From the NCBI GenBank assembly GCA_040756715.1, contig JBFLYE010000006.1, positions 1 through 9,485 on the forward strand: DNA of 9,485 nt. Reading direction: 5' to 3'. How positions within the stretch are numbered: the first letter of the stretch is position 1; each line of letters starts with the position of its first letter. The translations under genes were made by a program, and so were the position numbers. A model generated the notes under the pieces. It had not been told where the DNA came from, searched no databases, and saw only the letters and a list, made by a program, of their open reading frames with translations. This document shows, piece by piece, positions 1,936-9,485 of the stretch. This DNA is from JBFLYE01 sp040756715 [NCBI: bacterium]. Lineage in GTDB: Bacteria > UBA9089 > UBA9088.

Positions 1936-2431
1936 GGAAAACATTAAGACAAAGTCCATAATTGAAGCATTGATATTTTCACAAGAAAACCCCCTATCAG
2001 AAAAGATGCTTGCAAAAATCCTTGAAAAGAAAGAGGATGTTATAAAATCTGCAATTTGTGAATTAAAAGAGGATTTTAAAGATAGGGCTATTGAGCTTAC
2101 CAATATTGCCGGTGGATGGAAATTTCAGACAAAGAAGGAATTTTTTCCCTGGATAGAAAAGCTTTCTCCTTCTAAAAAAATAAAATTGTCAAAGCAGACC
2201 CTTGTTACATTAGCCATTATTGCCTATAATCAGCCCATAACCAGGCAGGGGATAGAGAGGATAAGGGGTGTGGATTCACATGGTGCAATAAATAGCCTAC
2301 TTGATTGCGAATTTGTTGAGATAGCGGGAGTAAAAAAGTCTCCAGGAAATCCATTTCTTTACAGGACAACCAAGAAATTCCTTTTAAGCACAGGCCTTCC
2401 TGATATATCAGCCCTTCCAAAAATACAATGA
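1934..2431 (+). CDS. scpB: segregation and condensation protein B (ScpB)
   Basis: Kleisin-associated winged-helix subunit of the bacterial SMC-ScpA-ScpB condensin, needed for chromosome compaction and segregation. The 165 residues hold the two expected winged-helix units. The N-terminal one has IIEALIFSQENPLSEKMLAKIL and the IELTNIAGGWKFQT hairpin (about residues 9-70). The C-terminal one has the family signature around LAIIAYNQPITRQGIERIRGVDS (about 92-114), then a PGNPFLYRTTKKFL stretch (about 137-150). It is close to the shorter end of family length. scpA, the usual partner next door, is not in the window; RNase Y lies immediately upstream. No Shine-Dalgarno sequence is seen, so translation may be coupled to rny, whose stop is 13 bp away. 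Its stop codon overlaps the next gene's start (ATGA at 2428-2431). Confidence 0.93.
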   Translation: MENIKTKSIIEALIFSQENPLSEKMLAKILEKKEDVIKSAICELKEDFKDRAIELTNIAGGWKFQTKKEFFPWIEKLSPSKKIKLSKQTLVTLAIIAYNQPITRQGIERIRGVDSHGAINSLLDCEFVEIAGVKKSPGNPFLYRTTKKFLLSTGLPDISALPKIQ

Positions 2432-3774
2432 TAAGTCAGGAATCAGGAGTCGGGGGTCGGGGGTCAAGGTGGTATCGGTTCAAGACTCAAGACTCAAAGC
2501 TCTTGGCTCTTGGCTTATTGATTTTTCTCCTTTTTCCATCCCTTTTGTTTTCTGCCCCATCCCTTTACAATAAGTCACCATCTGAAGAAAAAATGATAGA
2601 AACAAAGGGGCTTTCTCCCACCGGAACAATTTCAGTATTATTTTTAAGGGTTGAGTTTTCTGATGTTAGCTCTAACCATCAGGATTTTACAGAATATATG
2701 AATAAGATGGGCGATTATTATAAAAATGTATCCTCGGGAAAGCTTAATTTGGTATCCACAATTACTCAGGTCTTTGCTTTAACAAAAACAATGGCTTATT
2801 ACGGAAATCCTGAAAAGCCAGAGGAGCTAAAAAATGATGCAATAGCAACCGCCACAGCAGAGGGGATTAACCTTTCAAATTATGATTCTATAATGCTCCT
2901 CCATGCAGGATGTGGCGAGGAAACAGACAATGGTCTTCATCCTGAATGGATTAGATCCTCCTATATTGATGGAACATATAGCACAATCCCGGAGATGGAA
3001 AATTTTGGCATTTCTCCCTTTGGTGTATGGTGTCATGAATTTGGCCATCAGCTTGGAGTTCCTACTACCTTACCCGACCTTCCGGGAGCTGGAGTCTGGT
3101 CTTTAATGGATACAGGGTGCTACAATGGGAATGGCGAATACCCGGCAGGGCTTGATGCATATTCAAGGATTAGGCTTAATTGGATAGTTCCCCAAACAGC
3201 AACCACAATAGCTATTGATCCAAGATTAGATTACCCTGTCTATCAGCTTGGGATATTTGGACAAGAATGCTTCCTGGTTGAAAAAAGGGATGAGCCTGGG
3301 CTTCCGGGCAAGGGGTTCCTTGTTTGGCATCTTGTTTGGCATCAATCGGGCGATTTAGATAGGCTTTCCCTCCTTCAAGCAGATGGAGGAAATTTAGGTG
3401 ATTCGGGCGACCCATTTCCTGGCTCTACAAGGAATTTCCTTTTAGATGATTATACCAACCCATCTTTAAGATACTTTAATGGAAATCCATCTGGGTTTAG
3501 GATAGAGGTTTTAATCCCCCATATTCCAAAGGCAAAGGTCTTTCCAAATCCAATAAACCTAAATGAAACAAAGAGGGTTTTCTTTGAAGTAGAAAGAGAA
3601 AGCTCAGTTTTTATTTACAACATCAAGGGAGAGAATATAAAATATTTAAGAGACTTTCAGAATACGGGAAGGATATATTGGGATATAGAAAATATAGCCT
3701 CTGGTGTCTATATTTTTATGGTAACTGACAAAGACAGAAATCGCTCTTTTGGAAAGATTGGGATTATAAAATGA
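2428..3774 (+). CDS. secreted M6-family metalloprotease with FlgD/T9SS-like tail
   Basis: Probable zinc endopeptidase of the M6 (immune inhibitor A-like) family, exported. A signal peptide is visible: short basic region, then LLALGLLIFLLFPSLLFSA (about residues 25-43) with likely cleavage after Ala43. The catalytic site is HEFGHQLG with H203, E204 and H207, followed by GVWSLMDTG, which resembles the family's Met-turn. The C-terminal ~80 residues start with a KAKVFPNPIN element and end in an IASGVYIFMV beta-hairpin and GKIGIIK, typical of FlgD-like/T9SS type A C-terminal domains, suggesting surface anchoring or secretion. Oddities: the first ~30 codons run through two 7-bp repeat arrays, so the true start could instead be TTG at 2503; and the Asp expected soon after HExxHxxGxP is displaced (D217, with TTL inserted). 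Both ends overlap neighbours by ATGA. Confidence 0.85.
   Translation: MISQESGVGGRGSRWYRFKTQDSKLLALGLLIFLLFPSLLFSAPSLYNKSPSEEKMIETKGLSPTGTISVLFLRVEFSDVSSNHQDFTEYMNKMGDYYKNVSSGKLNLVSTITQVFALTKTMAYYGNPEKPEELKNDAIATATAEGINLSNYDSIMLLHAGCGEETDNGLHPEWIRSSYIDGTYSTIPEMENFGISPFGVWCHEFGHQLGVPTTLPDLPGAGVWSLMDTGCYNGNGEYPAGLDAYSRIRLNWIVPQTATTIAIDPRLDYPVYQLGIFGQECFLVEKRDEPGLPGKGFLVWHLVWHQSGDLDRLSLLQADGGNLGDSGDPFPGSTRNFLLDDYTNPSLRYFNGNPSGFRIEVLIPHIPKAKVFPNPINLNETKRVFFEVERESSVFIYNIKGENIKYLRDFQNTGRIYWDIENIASGVYIFMVTDKDRNRSFGKIGIIK
2435..2469 (+). repeat. heptad array 1 (5 x 7 bp, G-rich)
   Basis: Five contiguous 7-bp units following GTCRGGR: unit 1 GTCAGGA, unit 2 one base different, units 3 and 4 both GTCGGGG, unit 5 degenerate. 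It starts four bases after the scpB stop and is read in frame as the start of the metalloprotease. Same unit size and copy number as the four other arrays, but an unrelated unit sequence. Confidence 0.75.
2481..2515 (+). repeat. heptad array 2 (5 x 7 bp)
   Basis: Units 1 and 2 are CAAGACT, unit 3 is the hybrid CAAAGCT, units 4 and 5 are CTTGGCT. It lies 11 bp after array 1 and encodes the basic region and the first residues of the hydrophobic core of the protease signal peptide (about residues 18-30). The two unit types partly complement each other (CAAG against CTTG), so the transcript can form a small hairpin. Confidence 0.75.
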
Positions 3775-4463
3775 AGGCAATCATTGCAGGATTTTCTCCC
3801 TTTGAGCTTGGATTTGATGGCTTTTCTGAAAAGGAAATAGAAACAGAGAGAGGAAAGGCTCAGCTTTTTATAAAAGAAGGCATTGTTTTTCTTCCCAGGC
3901 ATGGAAAGGATAAAACAATTCCACCCCATATTATCAATCATCAAGCAAATATGCTTTCCCTAAAAAGCCTTGGCGTATCTCAAATTATCTCAATAAACTC
4001 GGTTGGCTCTTTAAAGGAGGAGATTACACCCGATGACTTTCTTGTGCCTGATGATTACATAGGTTTATGGGACACAAAGACATTTTATGATGATAAAATC
4101 GTCCATATTACCCCAGGGTTAGATGAAAATACAAGGCTCTTGATTATGGAGATTGCTAGCTCTTGTGGAATAAAGCCGATTGATGGCGGTGTATATGTCC
4201 AAACCCGAGGACCTCGGCTTGAGACAAAGGCAGAGATAAGGTTTTTAAAGACATTAGGGGATGTGGTTGGAATGACAATGGCTTCTGAGGCAACCATTGC
4301 CAAAGAGCTTGATATTCCTTATGCCTCATTGTGTATGGTGGATAATTATTGCAATGGAATAAAGGAAGAGCCCCTCTCTTTTTCTCTGATAAAGGAAGCA
4401 CAAAGAAAAAAGATGGGGTATCTGTTTAACTTCGTTAAACAATTGCAAATTGAAGGCCGATAA
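3771..4463 (+). CDS. PNP/MTAP-family nucleoside phosphorylase
   Basis: Cytosolic purine-nucleoside phosphorylase of the trimeric PNP/MTAP family, cleaving a purine (methylthio)nucleoside with phosphate for salvage. Landmarks are LPRHGKDKTIPPH (residues 41-53, the family RHG and PPH elements), INSVGSL (75-81), GVYVQTRGPRLETKAEIR (140-157), DVVGMTMASEA (164-174) and MVDNYCNGI (189-197). The length (230) is slightly below the family norm because the N-terminus is short: MKAIIAGFSP replaces the usual IIGGTG/IGGSG phosphate loop. Asn192 falls where 6-oxopurine enzymes carry Asn and adenine-specific MTAP carries Asp, so inosine, guanosine or methylthioinosine is a better guess than methylthioadenosine; this relies on hand alignment. 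The start overlaps the protease stop (ATGA), implying coupled translation. Confidence 0.85.
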   Translation: MKAIIAGFSPFELGFDGFSEKEIETERGKAQLFIKEGIVFLPRHGKDKTIPPHIINHQANMLSLKSLGVSQIISINSVGSLKEEITPDDFLVPDDYIGLWDTKTFYDDKIVHITPGLDENTRLLIMEIASSCGIKPIDGGVYVQTRGPRLETKAEIRFLKTLGDVVGMTMASEATIAKELDIPYASLCMVDNYCNGIKEEPLSFSLIKEAQRKKMGYLFNFVKQLQIEGR

Positions 4464-4465
4464 AA

Positions 4466-4500
4466 AATTTAAAATTTACAATTTAAAATTTAAAATTAAG
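4466..4500 (+). repeat. heptad array 3 (5 x 7 bp, A/T only)
   Basis: Units 1, 3 and 4 are AATTTAA, unit 2 ends in C, unit 5 is the degenerate AATTAAG. It fills most of the gap between the phosphorylase stop and the nrdD Shine-Dalgarno sequence. No promoter with correct spacing is visible within it. The pattern of units 1, 3 and 4 being identical with a variant second unit recurs in array 5. Confidence 0.75.
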
Positions 4501-4509
4501 CGAAGCGAC

Positions 4510-4520
4510 AAGGAGGGGGA
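4510..4520 (+). promoter_or_regulatory. strong Shine-Dalgarno sequence of nrdD
   Basis: AAGGAGGGGGA contains the full AAGGAGG consensus seven bases before ATG 4524. This favours ATG 4524 over the adjacent in-frame ATG 4527. It is the strongest ribosome binding site in the window and contrasts with scpB, the protease and the methyltransferase, which have none. Confidence 0.8.
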
Positions 4521-4523
4521 AAT

Positions 4524-6626
4524 ATGATGATTAAACACATTAGAAAGCGTGATGGAAGGCTTGTTCCATTTACTCAGGAGAAGATAACCGAGGCGGTCTT
4601 TAAGGCAACCAAGGCAGTAGGTGAGCCAGACAGAAAAAAGGCAGAAAAGATTACCAGGCAAGTGGTTGCGGCTATTTCGGTTATCTATAAGGATGAGAGG
4701 GTTCCTACCGTAGAGAATGTCCAGGACTTAGTGGAAAAGATGCTCATTGAGGATGGCTACGCTGAAGTAGCCAAGGCTTATATCCTCTATAGGGAACAGC
4801 ATGCAAAGCTTCGGGAGACAAAGGCACTTCTTTCTGATGCGGTCTCTATGGTGGATAGCTATTTGGGGGGGAAAGATTGGAGGGTTCGGGAAAATTCAAA
4901 TATGAGCTATTCCTTACAGGGGCTAAACAACCACATATTTTCCCTTATAACCTCCAATTACTGGCTTTCCAAGCTATATCCCCAAGATGTAAGGGATGCC
5001 CATATTTCTGGGGATATTCATATCCACGACATTGGTGTCTTATCGGTTTATTGCTGTGGATGGGACCTGAAAGACTTGCTTACTAGAGGTTTTGGTGGTG
5101 CCTTGGGGAAGGTTGAATCCTCACCTCCCAAGCACTTTAGGTCTGCTTTGGGCCAAATTGTCAATTTCTTCTATACCCTACAGGGAGAGGCAGCAGGGGC
5201 CCAGGCGTTTTCAAACTTCGACACACTCCTTTCACCGTTTATCCGTTATGACGGCTTGTCCTATAAGGATGTTAGGCAATGCCTTCAGGAATTTGTCTTT
5301 AATATGAACATTCCCACTCGGGTAGGCTTTCAAACCCCTTTTAGTAATATCACAATGGATGTTACACCACCGAGAAACCTTGCCAAAGAATATGTAATTA
5401 TTGGAGGAAAACCACAGGATACAACCTACGCTGAGTTTGAAAAAGAAATGTTAATGATCAACAAGGCATTCTGCGAGGTAATGGCAGAGGGCGATGCAAA
5501 GGGAAGGGTATTTACCTTTCCCATTCCCACCTATAATATTACAAGGGATTTTAAATGGGAGGATGAAAATTTAGAAGCCCTTTGGGAGATAACCTCAAAA
5601 TATGGCATCCCCTATTTTTCTAATTTCATAAACTCTGATATGTCTCCTGAGGATGCAAGGAGTATGTGTTGCAGACTTAGATTGGACAACCGCGAGCTCA
5701 GAAAAAGAGGAGGCGGGCTATTCGGCTCTAATCCCTTAACCGGCTCAATTGGTGTGGTTACCATAAACCTAGCCAGGGCAGCCTATCTTTCAAACCACAA
5801 TGAAGAGAAATTTTTTGAAAGGCTAGCAAGCCTTATGGAGATTGCCAAGGAAAGCCTAGAGATAAAAAGAAAAGTAATTGAAAGACTAACCGATGAGGAG
5901 CTATATCCCTATGCCAGGCACTACCTTTCATCTATTAAAGAGGGATTTGGTGGCTATTGGAAAAACCATTTCTCAACCATTGGGCTTATCGGGATGAATG
6001 AGGCTTGTCTTAATCTTATTGACTCTGATATTGCAAGTCCTGAAGGAAAAAATCTTGCCATAAAAACATTAAGTTTTATGAGGGAGAAAATCTTAAAATT
6101 TCAGGAAGAGACCGAGAGTCTTTATAACATTGAGGCAACCCCGGCAGAAGGAACAACCTATAGGCTTGCTATGCTTGACAAAGAGCAATACCCCGAGATT
6201 ATTACAAGCGGGACAAACAAACCATATTATACAAATTCAACCCACCTTCCCGTAGGCTATAGCGATGACCTATTCTCTGCCTTATCCCATCAGGATGAGC
6301 TTCAGGCATTATACACAGGAGGAACGGTATTTCATGGGTTTATTGGAGAAAAGATTGACAACCCTAAGATGTGTAAATTGCTAGTAAAGAAAATTGCCGA
6401 AAGATTCTCCCTTCCCTATTACACAATCACCCCAACCTTTAGCATCTGCCCAATCCATGGTTATATCAAGGGTGAACATCCTACCTGCCCAAAATCCTCA
6501 GGCAATGGGCTTTGCCATACAAAATGCGAGGTTTATTCAAGGGTGGTCGGATATTACAGACCCATTCAGCAATGGAACGATGGAAAGCAGGAGGAATTTA
6601 GGGAGAGAAGGGAGTATAAAATATAA
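4524..6626 (+). CDS. nrdD: anaerobic (class III) ribonucleoside-triphosphate reductase
   Basis: Glycyl-radical enzyme that reduces ribonucleoside triphosphates to dNTPs without oxygen, with formate as usual reductant. Order: N-terminal ATP-cone allosteric domain (about residues 4-92), catalytic ten-stranded barrel, C-terminal zinc site and radical loop. The thiyl-radical cysteine is in SMCCRLRLD (C382/C383). The glycyl radical is G676 in RVVGYYRPIQQWN, 24 residues from the end. Zinc-site candidates are C642, C655, C664 and C668; the second position of the usual CxxC is His (CPIH), and the last pair is spread out (CPKSSGNGLCHTKC), a variant arrangement. The 700 residues agree with E. coli NrdD (712). 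The activase gene nrdG, often adjacent, is not in the window. No NrdR-box pair was found upstream. Confidence 0.96.
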   Translation: MMIKHIRKRDGRLVPFTQEKITEAVFKATKAVGEPDRKKAEKITRQVVAAISVIYKDERVPTVENVQDLVEKMLIEDGYAEVAKAYILYREQHAKLRETKALLSDAVSMVDSYLGGKDWRVRENSNMSYSLQGLNNHIFSLITSNYWLSKLYPQDVRDAHISGDIHIHDIGVLSVYCCGWDLKDLLTRGFGGALGKVESSPPKHFRSALGQIVNFFYTLQGEAAGAQAFSNFDTLLSPFIRYDGLSYKDVRQCLQEFVFNMNIPTRVGFQTPFSNITMDVTPPRNLAKEYVIIGGKPQDTTYAEFEKEMLMINKAFCEVMAEGDAKGRVFTFPIPTYNITRDFKWEDENLEALWEITSKYGIPYFSNFINSDMSPEDARSMCCRLRLDNRELRKRGGGLFGSNPLTGSIGVVTINLARAAYLSNHNEEKFFERLASLMEIAKESLEIKRKVIERLTDEELYPYARHYLSSIKEGFGGYWKNHFSTIGLIGMNEACLNLIDSDIASPEGKNLAIKTLSFMREKILKFQEETESLYNIEATPAEGTTYRLAMLDKEQYPEIITSGTNKPYYTNSTHLPVGYSDDLFSALSHQDELQALYTGGTVFHGFIGEKIDNPKMCKLLVKKIAERFSLPYYTITPTFSICPIHGYIKGEHPTCPKSSGNGLCHTKCEVYSRVVGYYRPIQQWNDGKQEEFRERREYKI

Positions 6627-6656
6627 TATATTCTTTAGGAAGATCTACCGAATGTT

Positions 6657-7988
6657 ATGGTAACCATTATAGGTTTTAGCTTAGGTTTAATCATGGGCGG
6701 AATTATGGGATGGCTTATTGCCTCTTTGAAGGCTAAAACTAGAGAGGTATTGAACAATGAGCTAAGGCAGCAGATTCAACACAGAGATTCTGAAAGAGAC
6801 AAGCTTAATGAGGAACTCGTTGCGGAAAGACAAGCTAGGGTTGAGGCAATTACAAGACTTGAGGAATCTCAGAAGAGATTTGAGGAAGAAAAGGACCTTA
6901 TTGAGGCAATGAAAAAGGAGATGGCCGATACATTTAATGCCCTTTCATCTGCCGCCTTGAAGAGTAGTAGCGAGGACTTTCTTAAGCTTGCCTCTTTGCA
7001 TCTGGAAAAGATTATTGCCGATACAAAGGGAAGGCTGGGAGAGCATCAAGCAGCAATTGATGGGCTAATCAAGCCCCTTCAGGATGCTTTGAAAAGATCC
7101 GAGGAACAGATAAATAATATTGAGGCAAAGAGGAGGCAGGATTATGGGGGTTTACAAGAGCAGATTAAACTACTTGGCTTAACCCATCAGCAACTACAGA
7201 AAGAGACAAGCAATCTTGTCACTGCCTTACGGAAACCACAGGTTAGTGGTTCATGGGGTCAGCTTTCATTAAGGAGGACAGCTGAGCTTGCCGGGATGAC
7301 TGCCTACTGCGATTTTTATGAGCAGGTTTTAGTATCCACTGAAAGGGGTCATCTAAGACCTGATATGGTGGTTAAGCTTCCCAATGGCAGGGAGATTGTG
7401 GTAGATGCAAAGGCACCGGTTGATGTCTATCTAAATGCAATATCCGCATCACAAGAGGAAGAGAGAAAGAAGGGTATAGCCCAGTATGTTAATCAGGTAA
7501 GGATGCATATAAATAACCTTAGTTCCAAATCTTATTGGGAGCAATTTCCAAACTCTCCCGAAATGGTGGTGATGTATTTACCGGGAGAATCATTCTTTAG
7601 TGCAGCCGTGGAGTATGACCATAAGCTTATTGAAGAAAGTAGCATTAAAAAGGTAATCCTGGCTACGCCAACCACCTCTATTGCCCTCCTTAAGGCGATT
7701 GCTTGTGGTTGGCAGGAGAAGGAGATGGCAAAAAATGCTGAGCGAATAAGTATGCTAGGTAAGGAGCTATACGAAAGGATTAGCACACTGGCAAAGCATT
7801 TTGACGATATGGGTAGTGCAATTAAAAGGGCAATGGATGCTTATAACAAGGTAATCGGTTCAATGGAAGCAAAGGTGTTACCTTCAGTAAGAAAATTTAG
7901 AGAATTGGGGGTTAAGGTTGCAGGTGAAATACCCCCTTTTGAAGAAATAGACCATCTGCCAAGGAGGCTAATTTCTGGCCCAGAATGA
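6657..7988 (+). CDS. rmuC: DNA recombination protein RmuC
   Basis: RmuC homologue, linked in E. coli to limiting inversions and rearrangements at short inverted repeats. The 443 residues show an N-terminal membrane segment (about 3-23), a coiled coil (about 25-185) and the RmuC core. Core elements: GSWGQLSLRRTAELAGM, RPDMVVKLPNGREIVVDAKAPVD, VVMYLPGESFFSAAVE, and ILATPTTSIALLKAIACGW followed by NAERISMLGKELYERI. P235-D236 and D250-A-K252 fit a PD-(D/E)xK nuclease-like site, as proposed for this family. It follows nrdD by 30 bp, probably on the same transcript. The start is not well marked: AGGAAGA (6637-6643) is 13 bases away, longer than usual, but Met1 precisely precedes the membrane segment. 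Confidence 0.95.
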   Translation: MVTIIGFSLGLIMGGIMGWLIASLKAKTREVLNNELRQQIQHRDSERDKLNEELVAERQARVEAITRLEESQKRFEEEKDLIEAMKKEMADTFNALSSAALKSSSEDFLKLASLHLEKIIADTKGRLGEHQAAIDGLIKPLQDALKRSEEQINNIEAKRRQDYGGLQEQIKLLGLTHQQLQKETSNLVTALRKPQVSGSWGQLSLRRTAELAGMTAYCDFYEQVLVSTERGHLRPDMVVKLPNGREIVVDAKAPVDVYLNAISASQEEERKKGIAQYVNQVRMHINNLSSKSYWEQFPNSPEMVVMYLPGESFFSAAVEYDHKLIEESSIKKVILATPTTSIALLKAIACGWQEKEMAKNAERISMLGKELYERISTLAKHFDDMGSAIKRAMDAYNKVIGSMEAKVLPSVRKFRELGVKVAGEIPPFEEIDHLPRRLISGPE

Positions 7989-7989
7989 A

Positions 7990-8024
7990 GATTTAGGAAT
8001 TAAGAATTTGTAGTTTTTAGTTTT
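7990..8024 (+). repeat. heptad array 4 (5 x 7 bp)
   Basis: Five 7-bp units: GATTTAG, GAATTAA and GAATTTG (related, G-start), then TAGTTTT twice. It starts two bases after the rmuC stop and ends six bases before the annotated methyltransferase ATG. It is more degenerate than arrays 1, 3 and 5 but shows the same period and length, and two exact copies stand side by side. Confidence 0.6.
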
Positions 8025-8030
8025 AATAAA

Positions 8031-9029
8031 ATGTATACCTCTCAAAAAAGTGATATAATAAACATAATAAAAAGAAAAAAAATGCAAATGCTCTTGCCAT
8101 TTTATTATTCTTCTGTGGATAAAAAGAGACAAATCCTTGCTCGCTTATCCAGGAATGGTTTGAGAAAGGGATATAAGCGTTATTTGGGTTCCCCAATCCG
8201 TTATGCGGGTGGAAAAAGTTTAGCCGTGGGTTATGTAATTGAATATTTGCCCGATAATGTAAAAAGGGTGATTTCGCCCTTTTTTGGCGGTGGGTCGGTT
8301 GAGATTGCAATTGCTAAGAAATTAGGTATTCCTGTTCTTGGTTTTGAGATTTTTGACATTCTTGTAAATTACTGGCAGATTCAAATTAGTAAGCCTGATG
8401 AGCTTTACCAAAAACTAGCAGAGTTAAAGCCGACAAAAGAGGAATATGCGAAGGTAAAAGCTAAATTAAAGGCACACTGGAAAAAAGAGATAACATTGCC
8501 TTCCCTTGAACTCGCCGCTTATTACTATTTTAACCATAATCTCTCTTATGGGCCAGGATTTCTCGGCTGGATGTCAAAAATCTATGAAAATTCTGAAAGG
8601 TATAGTTTGATGATTGAGAAGGTTCGTGATTTTAATCTAAAAAATGTTTGGGTTGAATGTAAGTCTTTTGAGAATGTTCTTCCAAAATTTAGAAACGATT
8701 TTTTATATTGTGACCCACCTTATTATCTTGGAAAGGATAGCACCCTATTTCGTGGAATATATCCTCAGCGAAACTTCCCAATTCATCATAATAATTTTGA
8801 CCATGAAAAATTGCGTGATTTGCTGTTAAATCATCACAGAGGAGGGTTTATTCTTTCTTATAACGATAGCCTTACCATAAGAAAATGGTATTCAGAATGT
8901 CAGATTATAGAGGTTTCGTGGCAATACACGATGGGACAGGGTGAGACAAGAATTGGTTTAAACAGAAAAAGAGAAAACAGAAATCATGTTAAAAAATCTA
9001 ATGAAATTTTGGTGGTGAAATATGCATAG
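8031..9029 (+). CDS. N6-adenine DNA methyltransferase (Dam/D12-type, type II R-M)
   Basis: Transfers methyl from S-adenosylmethionine to adenine N6 in a specific DNA sequence. Motif order X-I-IV is that of the alpha (Dam, D12 class) group: PIRYAGGK (residues 55-62, motif X), SPFFGGGSVE (82-91, AdoMet-binding motif I), DPPY (228-231, catalytic motif IV). The variable region between I and IV should set the target; I cannot name the site. Motif X usually lies close to the N-terminus, so the ~50 residues before it are suspect. An extended -10 element at 8051-8059 would put transcription start downstream of ATG 8031, so ATG 8082 or 8088 is a likely true start. About 7 of 19 Arg codons are CGN, against about 4 of 46 in rny, hinting at foreign origin. 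Its stop overlaps the next ATG (9022). Confidence 0.9.
   Translation: MYTSQKSDIINIIKRKKMQMLLPFYYSSVDKKRQILARLSRNGLRKGYKRYLGSPIRYAGGKSLAVGYVIEYLPDNVKRVISPFFGGGSVEIAIAKKLGIPVLGFEIFDILVNYWQIQISKPDELYQKLAELKPTKEEYAKVKAKLKAHWKKEITLPSLELAAYYYFNHNLSYGPGFLGWMSKIYENSERYSLMIEKVRDFNLKNVWVECKSFENVLPKFRNDFLYCDPPYYLGKDSTLFRGIYPQRNFPIHHNNFDHEKLRDLLLNHHRGGFILSYNDSLTIRKWYSECQIIEVSWQYTMGQGETRIGLNRKRENRNHVKKSNEILVVKYA
8051..8059 (+). promoter_or_regulatory. extended -10 element inside the methyltransferase 5' end
   Basis: TGATATAAT is a perfect TG-N-TATAAT extended -10, which does not require a good -35 (none is seen 17 bp upstream). Transcription would start near 8066, after the annotated ATG 8031 and before the in-frame ATGs at 8082 and 8088. 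This supports a separate promoter for the modification gene and the shorter protein. Confidence 0.45.
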
Positions 9030-9099
9030 GAAGAAAGCAATGACATCAGAAAAGGCAAGTTTTGTTAAAAGACAAGGCCATCGTGATGCAAAAGAATGA
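9022..9099 (+). pseudogene. N-terminal fragment of a probable restriction endonuclease
   Basis: A 25-residue reading frame beginning at an ATG that overlaps the methyltransferase stop (ATGCATAG). Its sequence includes SEKASFVKRQGHRDAKE, which looks like a conserved N-terminus rather than random translation and which I associate, from memory only, with type II restriction endonucleases. An internal ATG at 9040 could also be the start. It ends at TGA 9097-9099, exactly where the next fragment begins in another frame. I read it as the 5' end of one gene broken by a deletion whose length is not a multiple of three, or by a frameshift plus deletion. Confidence 0.45.
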
Positions 9100-9413
9100 C
9101 ACGATTTGAGGAAGATTATTCTTTCCAGGCAATGAATGGGTTGGGGAAATTGTTTCTTGCGTGCATAGAGTGTTTTCCAGAAACATTTACAGAATATCAA
9201 AAGAACAAAAAATTATACAAGGAAAGGCTTCAATTTCCAATGATAGAATTGTGCAAGAGGCTAAAGAATCAAAATATACTTTCTGCTTTTATTGATAAAG
9301 CAATGTTTAACAGCGGCGAAGTGAATTATCTGGCAATAAAACACGAGGGAAAATTTCATGTGTTTTGGTCAAGGGATGTGGTTGAGATACTTATAGTATC
9401 TTCCATTACTTAG
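9096..9413 (+). CDS. probable restriction endonuclease remnant (later part)
   Basis: A 105-residue frame following the methyltransferase. Its start overlaps the previous fragment's stop (ATGA), but it has no Shine-Dalgarno sequence and reads directly into a conserved-looking core: EDYSFQAMNGLGKLFLACIE, FPETFTEYQKNKKLYKERLQ, then FNSGEVNYLAIKHEGKFHVF. I believe these belong to the same endonuclease as 9022-9099 because of position, co-orientation and the usual pairing of such genes with a type II methyltransferase; I did not verify this by search. At about 130 residues together, both pieces are shorter than typical type II enzymes (often 200-350), and no PD-(D/E)xK site is evident, so nuclease activity is probably lost. 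The end (VSSIT) looks ragged and may itself follow a frameshift. Alternative: a small hypothetical gene. Confidence 0.45.
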   Translation: MTRFEEDYSFQAMNGLGKLFLACIECFPETFTEYQKNKKLYKERLQFPMIELCKRLKNQNILSAFIDKAMFNSGEVNYLAIKHEGKFHVFWSRDVVEILIVSSIT

Positions 9414-9434
9414 TGCAAAAATAGTATTTAAGAA

Positions 9435-9469
9435 ATTTTGAATTCTAAATTTTGAATTTTGAATTGAAA
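9435..9469 (+). repeat. heptad array 5 (5 x 7 bp)
   Basis: Units 1, 3 and 4 are ATTTTGA, unit 2 is ATTCTAA, unit 5 is the degenerate ATTGAAA. It lies 21 bp after the stop of the endonuclease remnant. The arrangement (1 = 3 = 4, variant second, degenerate fifth) is the same as in array 3 although the unit differs. Confidence 0.75.
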
Positions 9470-9485
9470 AAGGTTAAGTTTTATA

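What the first reader, a model, noticed from the sequence alone, without database searches (positions are those of the whole stretch)
2435..9469. Five dispersed arrays, each five units of 7 bp, with different unit sequences
Arrays at 2435-2469, 2481-2515, 4466-4500, 7990-8024 and 9435-9469 all have period 7 and length 35 bp, and all sit at gene borders, but their units are unrelated (G-rich, mixed or A/T only). Conservation of format without conservation of sequence suggests one generating process or protein, not one mobile repeat. Arrays 3 and 5 even share the same internal order (units 1, 3 and 4 identical; unit 2 variant; unit 5 degenerate). Established parallel: heptanucleotide STRR repeats in heterocystous cyanobacteria. 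Their presence here and their fixed copy number are, to my knowledge, not well explained.
Basis: partly seen in the sequence, partly recalled or inferred. Interest (0 to 1): 0.72.

Follow-up and report, generated by a model that had tools for sequence, protein, structure and literature searches.

The report
Seven-base DNA arrays renewed within genes
This uncultured bacterium is peppered with short runs of a 7-letter DNA word, even inside housekeeping genes, and a related species often keeps such a run at the same place but spelled with a different word, which gives a new way to study why bacteria favour a 7-letter step.

Summary
The five arrays are real: each has at least 21 of 28 lag-7 matches, and none of 300 shuffles of the window reached 21. 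They sample a genome-wide trait: 64 period-7 segments in contigs C1-C51 against 0.7 in shuffles. They are not one kind of thing. Array 5 lies in a MITE, array 3 in a second dispersed element, arrays 1-2 at a border where a congener has a period-8 array, and array 4 looks decayed. Elsewhere arrays sit inside housekeeping genes such as leuS, mfd and mnmG. Of 21 gene or gene-edge sites aligned with the congener, 13 carry a called array in both genomes, mostly with another unit. Paired arrays still match in register (0.60 against 0.27 mispaired), so they look inherited and re-homogenised rather than newly inserted. Copy number is not fixed: perfect 30-37 nt arrays occur in ORFs, while intergenic perfect runs stop at 20 nt. 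Best reading: recurrent 7(-8)-nt slippage or duplication filtered by reading frame. Reverse transcriptase, Y1 transposase, Y-family polymerase and hairpin pairing are not supported as causes. The heptamer bias of prokaryotes is known and unexplained.

The parts
2435..2469 (+). Array 1 (GTCAGGA/GTCGGGG units), single-locus array directly after the scpB stop, in the 5' end of ORF 2428-3774
   Evidence: 22/28 lag-7 matches; maximal segment 2436-2465; the congener has a degenerate stretch here and G002 nothing comparable
2481..2515 (+). Array 2 (CAAGACT changing to CTTGGCT), same border
   Evidence: 23/28; at this border the congener has a perfect 35-nt period-8 array
4466..4500 (+). Array 3 (AATTTAA units), inside a dispersed element
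   Evidence: 24/28; maximal segment 4464-4497; absent from the same border in G001 and G002 but similar copies at many other places of G001
4417..4513 (+). Approximate extent of the dispersed element that holds array 3 (heptamer arms, then AAGCGAAGCGA); it also supplies the last codons of ORF 3771-4463
   Evidence: Repeated partial matches of 4417-4452, 4441-4497 and 4464-4513 in G001; four other G000 loci with heptamers next to AAGCGAAGCG
7990..8024 (+). Array 4, weak, probably decayed
   Evidence: 21/28, significant against shuffles but not called by TRF or at score 12
9435..9469 (+). Array 5 (AATTTTG units), left heptamer block of a MITE
   Evidence: 21/28; maximal segment 9434-9465; same block in 19 of 23 left blocks matched in the G000 loci
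9392..9485 (+). MITE copy cut by the contig end; it supplies the stop codon of ORF 9096-9413
   Evidence: TATAGTATCTTCC start at 9392; 23 complete copies in the G000 loci read, modal length 241 bp

Best explanation
The arrays are products of a recurrent local duplication (slippage) process with a preferred step of 7 nt and a second preference for 8 nt, strong in some lineages and weak in close relatives. They settle in neutral DNA: gene borders, mobile-element interiors, protein loops and linkers. Arrays persist at a site by descent. Units are copied onto their neighbours, so an array stays uniform while its unit drifts (concerted evolution). In coding DNA only changes that keep the frame survive; the smallest pure unit change that does so is three units (21 nt), which would explain why long perfect arrays in ORFs have about 4.3-5.3 units while intergenic arrays, free to change unit by unit, are heterogeneous. 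Shown: period-7 excess, conserved sites, relatedness in register, uniformity within arrays above identity between species, the ORF-intergenic contrast, and period 7 against 8 at matching places. Inferred: that slippage during DNA synthesis is the copying step, and that frame selection sets the size. Open: why 7.
For: 64 period-7 segments against 0.7 and 0.0 in two kinds of shuffle. Excess both in ORF interiors and between genes. 13 of 21 aligned sites have a called array in G000 and G001. In-register identity 0.595 against 0.268 mispaired, 0 of 20,000 permutations as high. In the gap-free pairs, units agree better within an array than between genomes. Perfect runs of 30-37 nt: 12 in ORF interiors, 4 near ORF ends, 0 of 13 intergenic runs. 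A copy of one intergenic array differs by exactly one 7-nt unit. LeuRS array has period 7 in G000 and 8 in G001 with related units. No reverse transcriptase or Y1 transposase match in G000.
Against: Units recur at unrelated loci far above chance and have a purine-block/pyrimidine-block grammar, which plain slippage does not predict. Length differences at shared sites (0 to 27 nt) are in frame but mostly not multiples of 7 or 21. MITE copies show no unit gain or loss in 59 blocks (divergence is low and the blocks are imperfect). No gene tested explains why G002, or G009 and G015 against G012, have few arrays. Six of 21 sites have a called array in one genome only.
Confidence: 0.6

Rival explanations
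1. A dedicated, possibly templated writer (reverse transcriptase, telomerase-like polymerase, or a Y1/RAYT-type transposase system) adds or rewrites heptamers at many sites.
For: Restricted unit vocabulary shared by G000 and G001: 34 same-unit pairs against 2.3 expected in G000, 16 against 1.1 in G001, six shared units. Abrupt differences in abundance within a genus: 455 pattern matches in G012 against 3, 8 and 0 in its congeners.
Against: No RVT_1 match in array-rich G000, G005 and G016; no Y1_Tnp match in array-rich G000, G001 and G005. Period changes from 7 to 8 with related units, and in-register descent.
Confidence: 0.17
2. Arrays are independent insertions that land in the same few tolerant loops in each lineage.
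For: The MnmG array sits where this family is much shorter than other phylum members. Two TMEM260-like paralogues have arrays in the same loop. Six of 21 sites have a called array in one genome only. A first test found no excess similarity between paired arrays (p = 0.49).
Against: In-register identity of 0.595 against 0.268; shared unit cores at Mfd, ValRS site 1 and PMT28.
Confidence: 0.1
3. Mobile elements that carry heptamer blocks spread all arrays.
For: True for array 5 (MITE) and array 3.
Against: The in-gene arrays inspected have no element around them, and their units differ from the element's in most cases.
Confidence: 0.05
4. Arrays are selected functional sites (regulator binding, terminators, protein linkers with a role).
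For: One intergenic array is identical in G000 and G001 while its flanks are 88-89% identical. Other authors proposed regulatory roles for TAACTGA and GGGAATC arrays (PMC4679880, PMC4692102, passages).
Against: Unit sequence changes at a fixed site while only place and frame are kept; sites lie in unrelated housekeeping proteins.
Confidence: 0.05
5. Assembly artefact (k-mer collapse of longer arrays to about 31-37 nt).
For: Perfect period-7 runs end at 37 nt in the contigs counted; one of 170 contig ends lies in an ordinary array.
Against: G001 has a perfect 45-nt period-8 and a perfect 38-nt period-7 array. Random collapse would break the frame in two of three genes, but no perfect run of 30 nt or more falls in the frame-broken class. 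For G000 alone a ceiling is not excluded.
Confidence: 0.03

Closest known systems
Heptameric long simple sequence repeats of prokaryotes (Mrazek et al. 2007, known to me here only as cited; SPADE survey PMC6344855, passages)
   Same: Unit length 7 dominates; no settled explanation; polymerase contact length proposed as the cause of slippage.
   Different: Those reports stress intergenic DNA. Here arrays also sit in the interior of housekeeping genes, with many units per genome and with sites kept while units change.
GGGNATC-type heptamers of Xanthomonas and Nostoc (PMC4692102, passages)
   Same: Sites mostly kept between two species while length and sequence vary; majority of four units; some inverted pairs.
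   Different: One G-rich unit type with a possible quadruplex role; under-represented on the coding strand in ORFs.
TAACTGA repeats of Beggiatoaceae and cyanobacteria (PMC4679880, passages and section 15)
   Same: Heptamer arrays of 2-6 units; in ORFs the orientation avoids stops; patchy distribution among relatives.
   Different: A single unit per genome, mostly just upstream of start codons.
Cyanobacterial STRRs and the heptamers of the tRNA-Leu intron (recalled; not read)
   Same: Tandem 7-nt units, several unit types.
   Different: None of the STRR units that I recall (CCCCAGT, TTGGTCA, CAACAGT) is among the units counted here.
MITEs of the IS630/Tc1-mariner kind (likeness by recall)
   Same: About 241 bp, imperfect terminal inverted repeats, TA at both ends, many near-identical copies.
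   Different: Contain inverted heptamer blocks; the parent transposase was not sought.

Membership tests
Heptameric long simple sequence repeats | 7-nt units over-represented against other unit lengths and against shuffled sequence | tested here: met
   64 against 0.7; other non-harmonic periods 0-7
Heptameric long simple sequence repeats | Whole-unit length changes between copies or relatives | tested here: inconclusive
   One intergenic case of exactly 7 nt, in a multi-copy sequence; none in 59 MITE blocks; coding sites change in multiples of 3
Cyanobacterial STRR | Defined STRR units (recalled) | tested here: not met
   Compared by eye with the units: none equal; the STRR units come from memory
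Phase-variable contingency repeats | Arrays that switch the reading frame on and off | tested here: not met
   Perfect runs of 30 nt or more lie fully within one ORF (16 of 16) and aligned sites differ by multiples of 3; switching within a population could not be tested
Hairpin-prone (CNG-like) expanding repeats | Units with more self-pairing than permuted units | tested here: not met
   Mean rank 0.52 over 37 units
MITE (window array 5) | Short dispersed copies with terminal inverted repeats | tested here: met
   23 complete copies with the same ends; the ends were matched by the search pattern itself, the inverted repeat seen by eye
MITE (window array 5) | TA target duplication shown by an empty site | not tested
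   No empty site was compared
Reverse-transcriptase or Y1-transposase driven repeats | RVT_1 or Y1_Tnp gene in the genome | tested here: not met
   No match in G000 for either; G000 is about 96% complete

The most novel reading that the evidence does not exclude
A switchable, trans-acting activity of unknown identity renews heptamer arrays at fixed sites across the genome, with a sequence preference (a purine block, then a pyrimidine block). Lineages that lose it let their arrays decay, as G002 and some members of genus g8 may have done.
Probability: 0.17. Interest if true: 0.85.

Novelty: new variant of a known kind. Interest (0 to 1): 0.56.

Why it matters
A survey of 7,006 prokaryote genomes called tandem heptamers the most abundant repeats in intergenic DNA of many species, with no clear clue to their function (PMC6344855, passage seen). 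Here the same step is seen inside housekeeping genes, where the reading frame constrains what the process may leave behind, and a congener carries different words at the same sites. Array-rich and array-poor members of one genus exist. This makes the old question 'why seven?' testable by comparison and by a simple reporter assay. It also warns annotators that linker peptides such as ECGMRNA or KSKVKSQ may be DNA-driven filler.

Tried and rejected
Reverse transcriptase as writer: no RVT_1 match in G000. Y1/RAYT transposase: no match in G000 or G001. Mismatch-repair loss as the switch: MutS_V has no match in G000-G004, G006-G008, G011 and G012 and matches in G005, G009, G010 and G013-G018, so no overall agreement with array abundance, although within genus g8 only the array-rich G012 lacks it. 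Y-family polymerase: no IMS match in 19 of 19 genomes, while 11 of 14 control genomes ring. SbcD: no match in G000 or G001, weak matches in 9 of 19, none over the cut-off; no consistent relation. Hairpin-prone units: not supported.

Assembly ceiling: suspected because perfect period-7 runs end at 37 nt in the contigs counted; contradicted in G001 by a perfect 38-nt period-7 and a perfect 45-nt period-8 array, not excluded for G000. Of 170 contig ends examined, 15 are period-7: 14 of the AATTTTG kind and 1 ordinary.

First relatedness test (p = 0.49) used 8 hand-picked pairs and local alignment without register. One search uses the register, on 12 of the 15 sites that have an array, called or weak, in both genomes; ValRS site 2, TMEM260 site 2 and the L010 N-terminus were left out by hand. 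For 7 of the 12 the alignment has gaps at or near the array, so the aligner had some freedom; the five gap-free pairs give 0.59, 0.39, 0.77, 0.49 and 0.68. In one search my TMEM260 strings were one base out of register (0.26); one search has the right value (0.39). Two sites that I first counted as arrays in both genomes did not pass a later check: the TrpB/TrpA border has none called in G000, the L010 N-terminus only a weak one; the counts here use that check.

The 20 contigs were mostly chosen for AATTTTG matches, so no rate rests on them; rates use contigs C1-C51 (390 kb, 20 kb of it N, eight contigs wholly N; C35 cut at 20 kb). One search masks arrays that resemble MITE blocks; this drops four perfect AAAATTC arrays listed (L005 and L166 interior, L019 near a start, L020 only partly over an ORF; contexts). 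The unit grammar was found after looking at the units; its presence in both the ORF and the intergenic subset is the only check.

Literature searches. In their listings I saw nothing that describes site-conserved, unit-changing heptamer arrays inside genes; most subscription journals are not in that library. PMC4060949 was searched for heptamers without a relevant passage.
Full report
WHAT IS IN THE WINDOW. The window is contig 6 of a 1.55 Mb, 218-contig genome with estimated completeness of 96%. Pfam finds RNase Y, ScpB, an M6-type peptidase with a secretion tail domain, a PNP_UDP_1 phosphorylase, anaerobic ribonucleotide reductase, RmuC and a D12 adenine methyltransferase; the 105-aa ORF 9096-9413 has no family. 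No Rfam family reaches its threshold in the window. The five reported arrays have 22, 23, 24, 21 and 21 of 28 lag-7 matches. None of 300 dinucleotide shuffles of the window reached 21. Array 4 is among the weakest and TRF does not report it.

A GENOME-WIDE TRAIT. In contigs C1-C51 (390 kb, 20 kb of it N) I counted 64 period-7 segments, against 0.7 in dinucleotide shuffles and 0.0 in 4th-order Markov sequence. Other periods from 1 to 13 gave 0-7, period 8 most; 14, 16 and 21 (57, 6, 12) are harmonics of 7 or 8. Of a congener (G001) and of another genus of the same family (G002) I read 399 kb and 194 kb: 36 and 0 period-7 segments. G002 is not wholly without arrays: a few lie on other contigs. 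A degenerate heptamer pattern is patchy over the phylum: 455 matches in G012 but 3, 8 and 0 in three members of its genus, and 332 and 185 in G000 and G001 but 11 in G002. These counts include dispersed elements, and the reversed-pattern control is also high in some genomes (91 in G000, 101 in G005 against 100 matches, 35 in G013 against 8). In 80 named loci from other bacteria and from G002 (861 kb) there are 6 period-7 segments, against 0-4 for other periods from 3 to 15.

TWO KINDS OF ARRAY. (A) Arrays in dispersed elements. Array 5 is the left block of a MITE. 23 complete copies were matched in the 80 G000 stretches read (modal length 241 bp, 10 of 23; ends TATAGT...ACTATA). The heptamer blocks that the search anchored kept their length in units in 23 of 23 and 36 of 36 cases, at about 1.3% divergence among the ten modal copies; some copies carry the left block twice. 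The MITE starts at window 9392 and supplies the stop of ORF 9096-9413. Array 3 belongs to another dispersed element: pieces of window 4417-4513 recur at many places of the congener, and heptamers joined to AAGCGAAGCG occur at four other G000 loci; the same border of G001 and G002 lacks the array. (B) Single-locus arrays with many different units; arrays 1 and 2 are examples and array 4 probably a decayed one.

ARRAYS INSIDE GENES. Period-7 segments lie in ORF interiors (10 in G000 C1-C51, 13 in G001, against 0-5 for other non-harmonic periods) and between genes (45, many in the MITE, and 15). Pfam supports the genes for LeuRS (array in the editing domain), Mfd, another class I tRNA synthetase that I read as ValRS, MnmG, a fused FdhD-NadA, TMEM260-like proteins, a Wzy-type protein and TrpA. 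The names MurG, AroA, NadD, UvrD-like, PMT28 and glycosyltransferase used below are my own reading of the sequences. The consensus unit is stop-free on the coding strand in all three frames in 39 of 44 ORF arrays; 21 of these 39 are not stop-free on the other strand.

SAME SITE, DIFFERENT WORD. I aligned 21 in-gene or gene-edge sites between G000 and G001. This is what could be aligned: 42 G001 arrays gave 10 two-sided placements, some of them intergenic, and 12 chosen G000 sites gave 11 (one had no match). With a score of 12 or more at period 7 or 8 as the rule, 13 of 21 have an array in both genomes: MnmG, TMEM260 sites 1 and 2, FdhD-NadA, NadD, one glycosyltransferase site, MurG, LeuRS, Mfd, Wzy, ValRS sites 1 and 2, and PMT28. 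Two of 21 are weak in G000 (the other glycosyltransferase site and the L010 N-terminus). Six of 21 have it in one genome only: AroA, the UvrD-like gene and the L060, L006 and L178 ORFs in G000, and the TrpB/TrpA border in G001 (for the doubtful ones). At AroA, the UvrD-like gene and the L060 ORF the congener is 27, 27 and 21 nt shorter. Examples: MnmG GAATGCG against ATTGCAA at equal length; Wzy TTGTCTG against CTTCTTA at equal length; LeuRS TCAGGGG (7) against TCAGAGGG (8). PMT28 keeps the same unit in both, and Mfd shares part of it. The window's own border of arrays 1-2 behaves alike: G001 has a degenerate stretch and then a perfect 35-nt period-8 array. At ten of these loops G002 was aligned too: three show a weak remnant (LeuRS, PMT28, ValRS site 1), seven none.

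DESCENT WITH RE-HOMOGENISATION. Alignment register separates inheritance from new insertion. Twelve paired arrays agree at 0.595 of positions, against 0.268 for mispaired arrays and 0.23-0.35 for true pairs at wrong phases; 0 of 20,000 permutations were as high. One pair (NadD) is at 0.06. For seven of the twelve the aligner had some freedom; the five gap-free pairs give 0.59, 0.39, 0.77, 0.49 and 0.68. A cruder test without register found nothing. Within the gap-free arrays the units agree better than the two genomes do (for example 1.00 and 0.96 against 0.59 in MnmG; 0.79 and 0.82 against 0.77 in Mfd), while measured flanks agree at 79-94%. That is the mark of concerted evolution. A copy of one multi-copy intergenic sequence differs by exactly one 7-nt unit, whereas another intergenic array is identical in both genomes.

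LENGTH. In the G000 and G001 contigs read, perfect period-7 runs of 30-37 nt occur in ORF interiors (12) and near ORF ends (4), not among 13 intergenic runs (all 18-20 nt) and not in the partly overlapping class (0 of 2) (arrays like MITE blocks masked). I propose that the reading frame explains this: a pure unit change in a gene must be a multiple of three units (21 nt), so surviving expansions are large and uniform, while intergenic arrays can change unit by unit. Length differences at shared sites (0, 3, 6, 9, 12, 15, 21, 24, 27 nt) show that other in-frame indels act as well, so this stays an inference.

UNIT VOCABULARY. Units recur at unrelated loci more than chance allows: 34 same-unit pairs against 2.3 expected in G000 (44 arrays) and 16 against 1.1 in G001 (30 arrays); six units are shared. 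They tend to have one purine block and one pyrimidine block per unit: 20 of 29 distinct ORF units against 8.5-9.9 expected, 10 of 11 intergenic ones against 3.5-4.1. They do not self-pair more than permuted units. Plain slippage explains this preference least well.

WHAT IT IS NOT. A reverse transcriptase or Y1 transposase of the tested families is not needed. MutS, SbcD and Y-family polymerase do not track the trait over the phylum. An assembly ceiling is contradicted in G001 and few contig ends lie in ordinary arrays (1 of 170).

PLACE AMONG KNOWN THINGS. Heptamer excess in prokaryotes is known. PMC6344855 (passages seen) reports it for a wide range of species without explanation. PMC4692102 and PMC4679880 (passages seen, and section 15 of the latter) relay the proposal of Mrazek et al. 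2007, which I did not read, that 7 nt may be the length contacted by the polymerase. PMC4692102 also found that heptamer sites are mostly kept while length and sequence vary between two Xanthomonas, with four units the commonest. What is added here: many units per genome, arrays within housekeeping genes with in-register descent, a 7-to-8 change at one site, the ORF-intergenic contrast in perfection, and abundance that differs sharply between close relatives. The listings showed no report of these points.

Noticed in passing
window 9392-9485 and many G000 loci: A MITE of about 241 bp with TATAGT...ACTATA ends, many near-identical copies; 14 of 170 contig ends examined lie in AATTTTG-type blocks, so it probably breaks the assembly.
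   Followed up: partly
window 4417-4513: A second dispersed element with heptamer arms and AAGCGAAGCGA; it encodes the last residues of the phosphorylase ORF 3771-4463.
   Followed up: partly
L265, L266, L136 (MnmG): MnmG of this family is much shorter at one place than in other phylum members, and the heptamer array of G000 and G001 sits there.
   Followed up: partly
L179:2188-4062 and L119:18243-19925: FdhD and NadA are fused in one reading frame, with a heptamer array as the linker in both species.
   Followed up: no
L303 (G001 LeuRS): Perfect 45-nt period-8 array at the site where G000 has a period-7 array; period 8 is the second most common period in both genomes.
   Followed up: partly
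L120:18228-18260 and L053:2456-2488: An intergenic heptamer array is identical in both species while its flanks are 88-89% identical; perhaps a functional or recently mobile copy.
   Followed up: no
19 phylum genomes G000-G018: No Y-family polymerase (IMS) match in any of the 19, unusual for so many bacteria.
   Followed up: no
G012:C164: The MnmG match is split near residue 136 by about 159 nt within an open frame.
   Followed up: no
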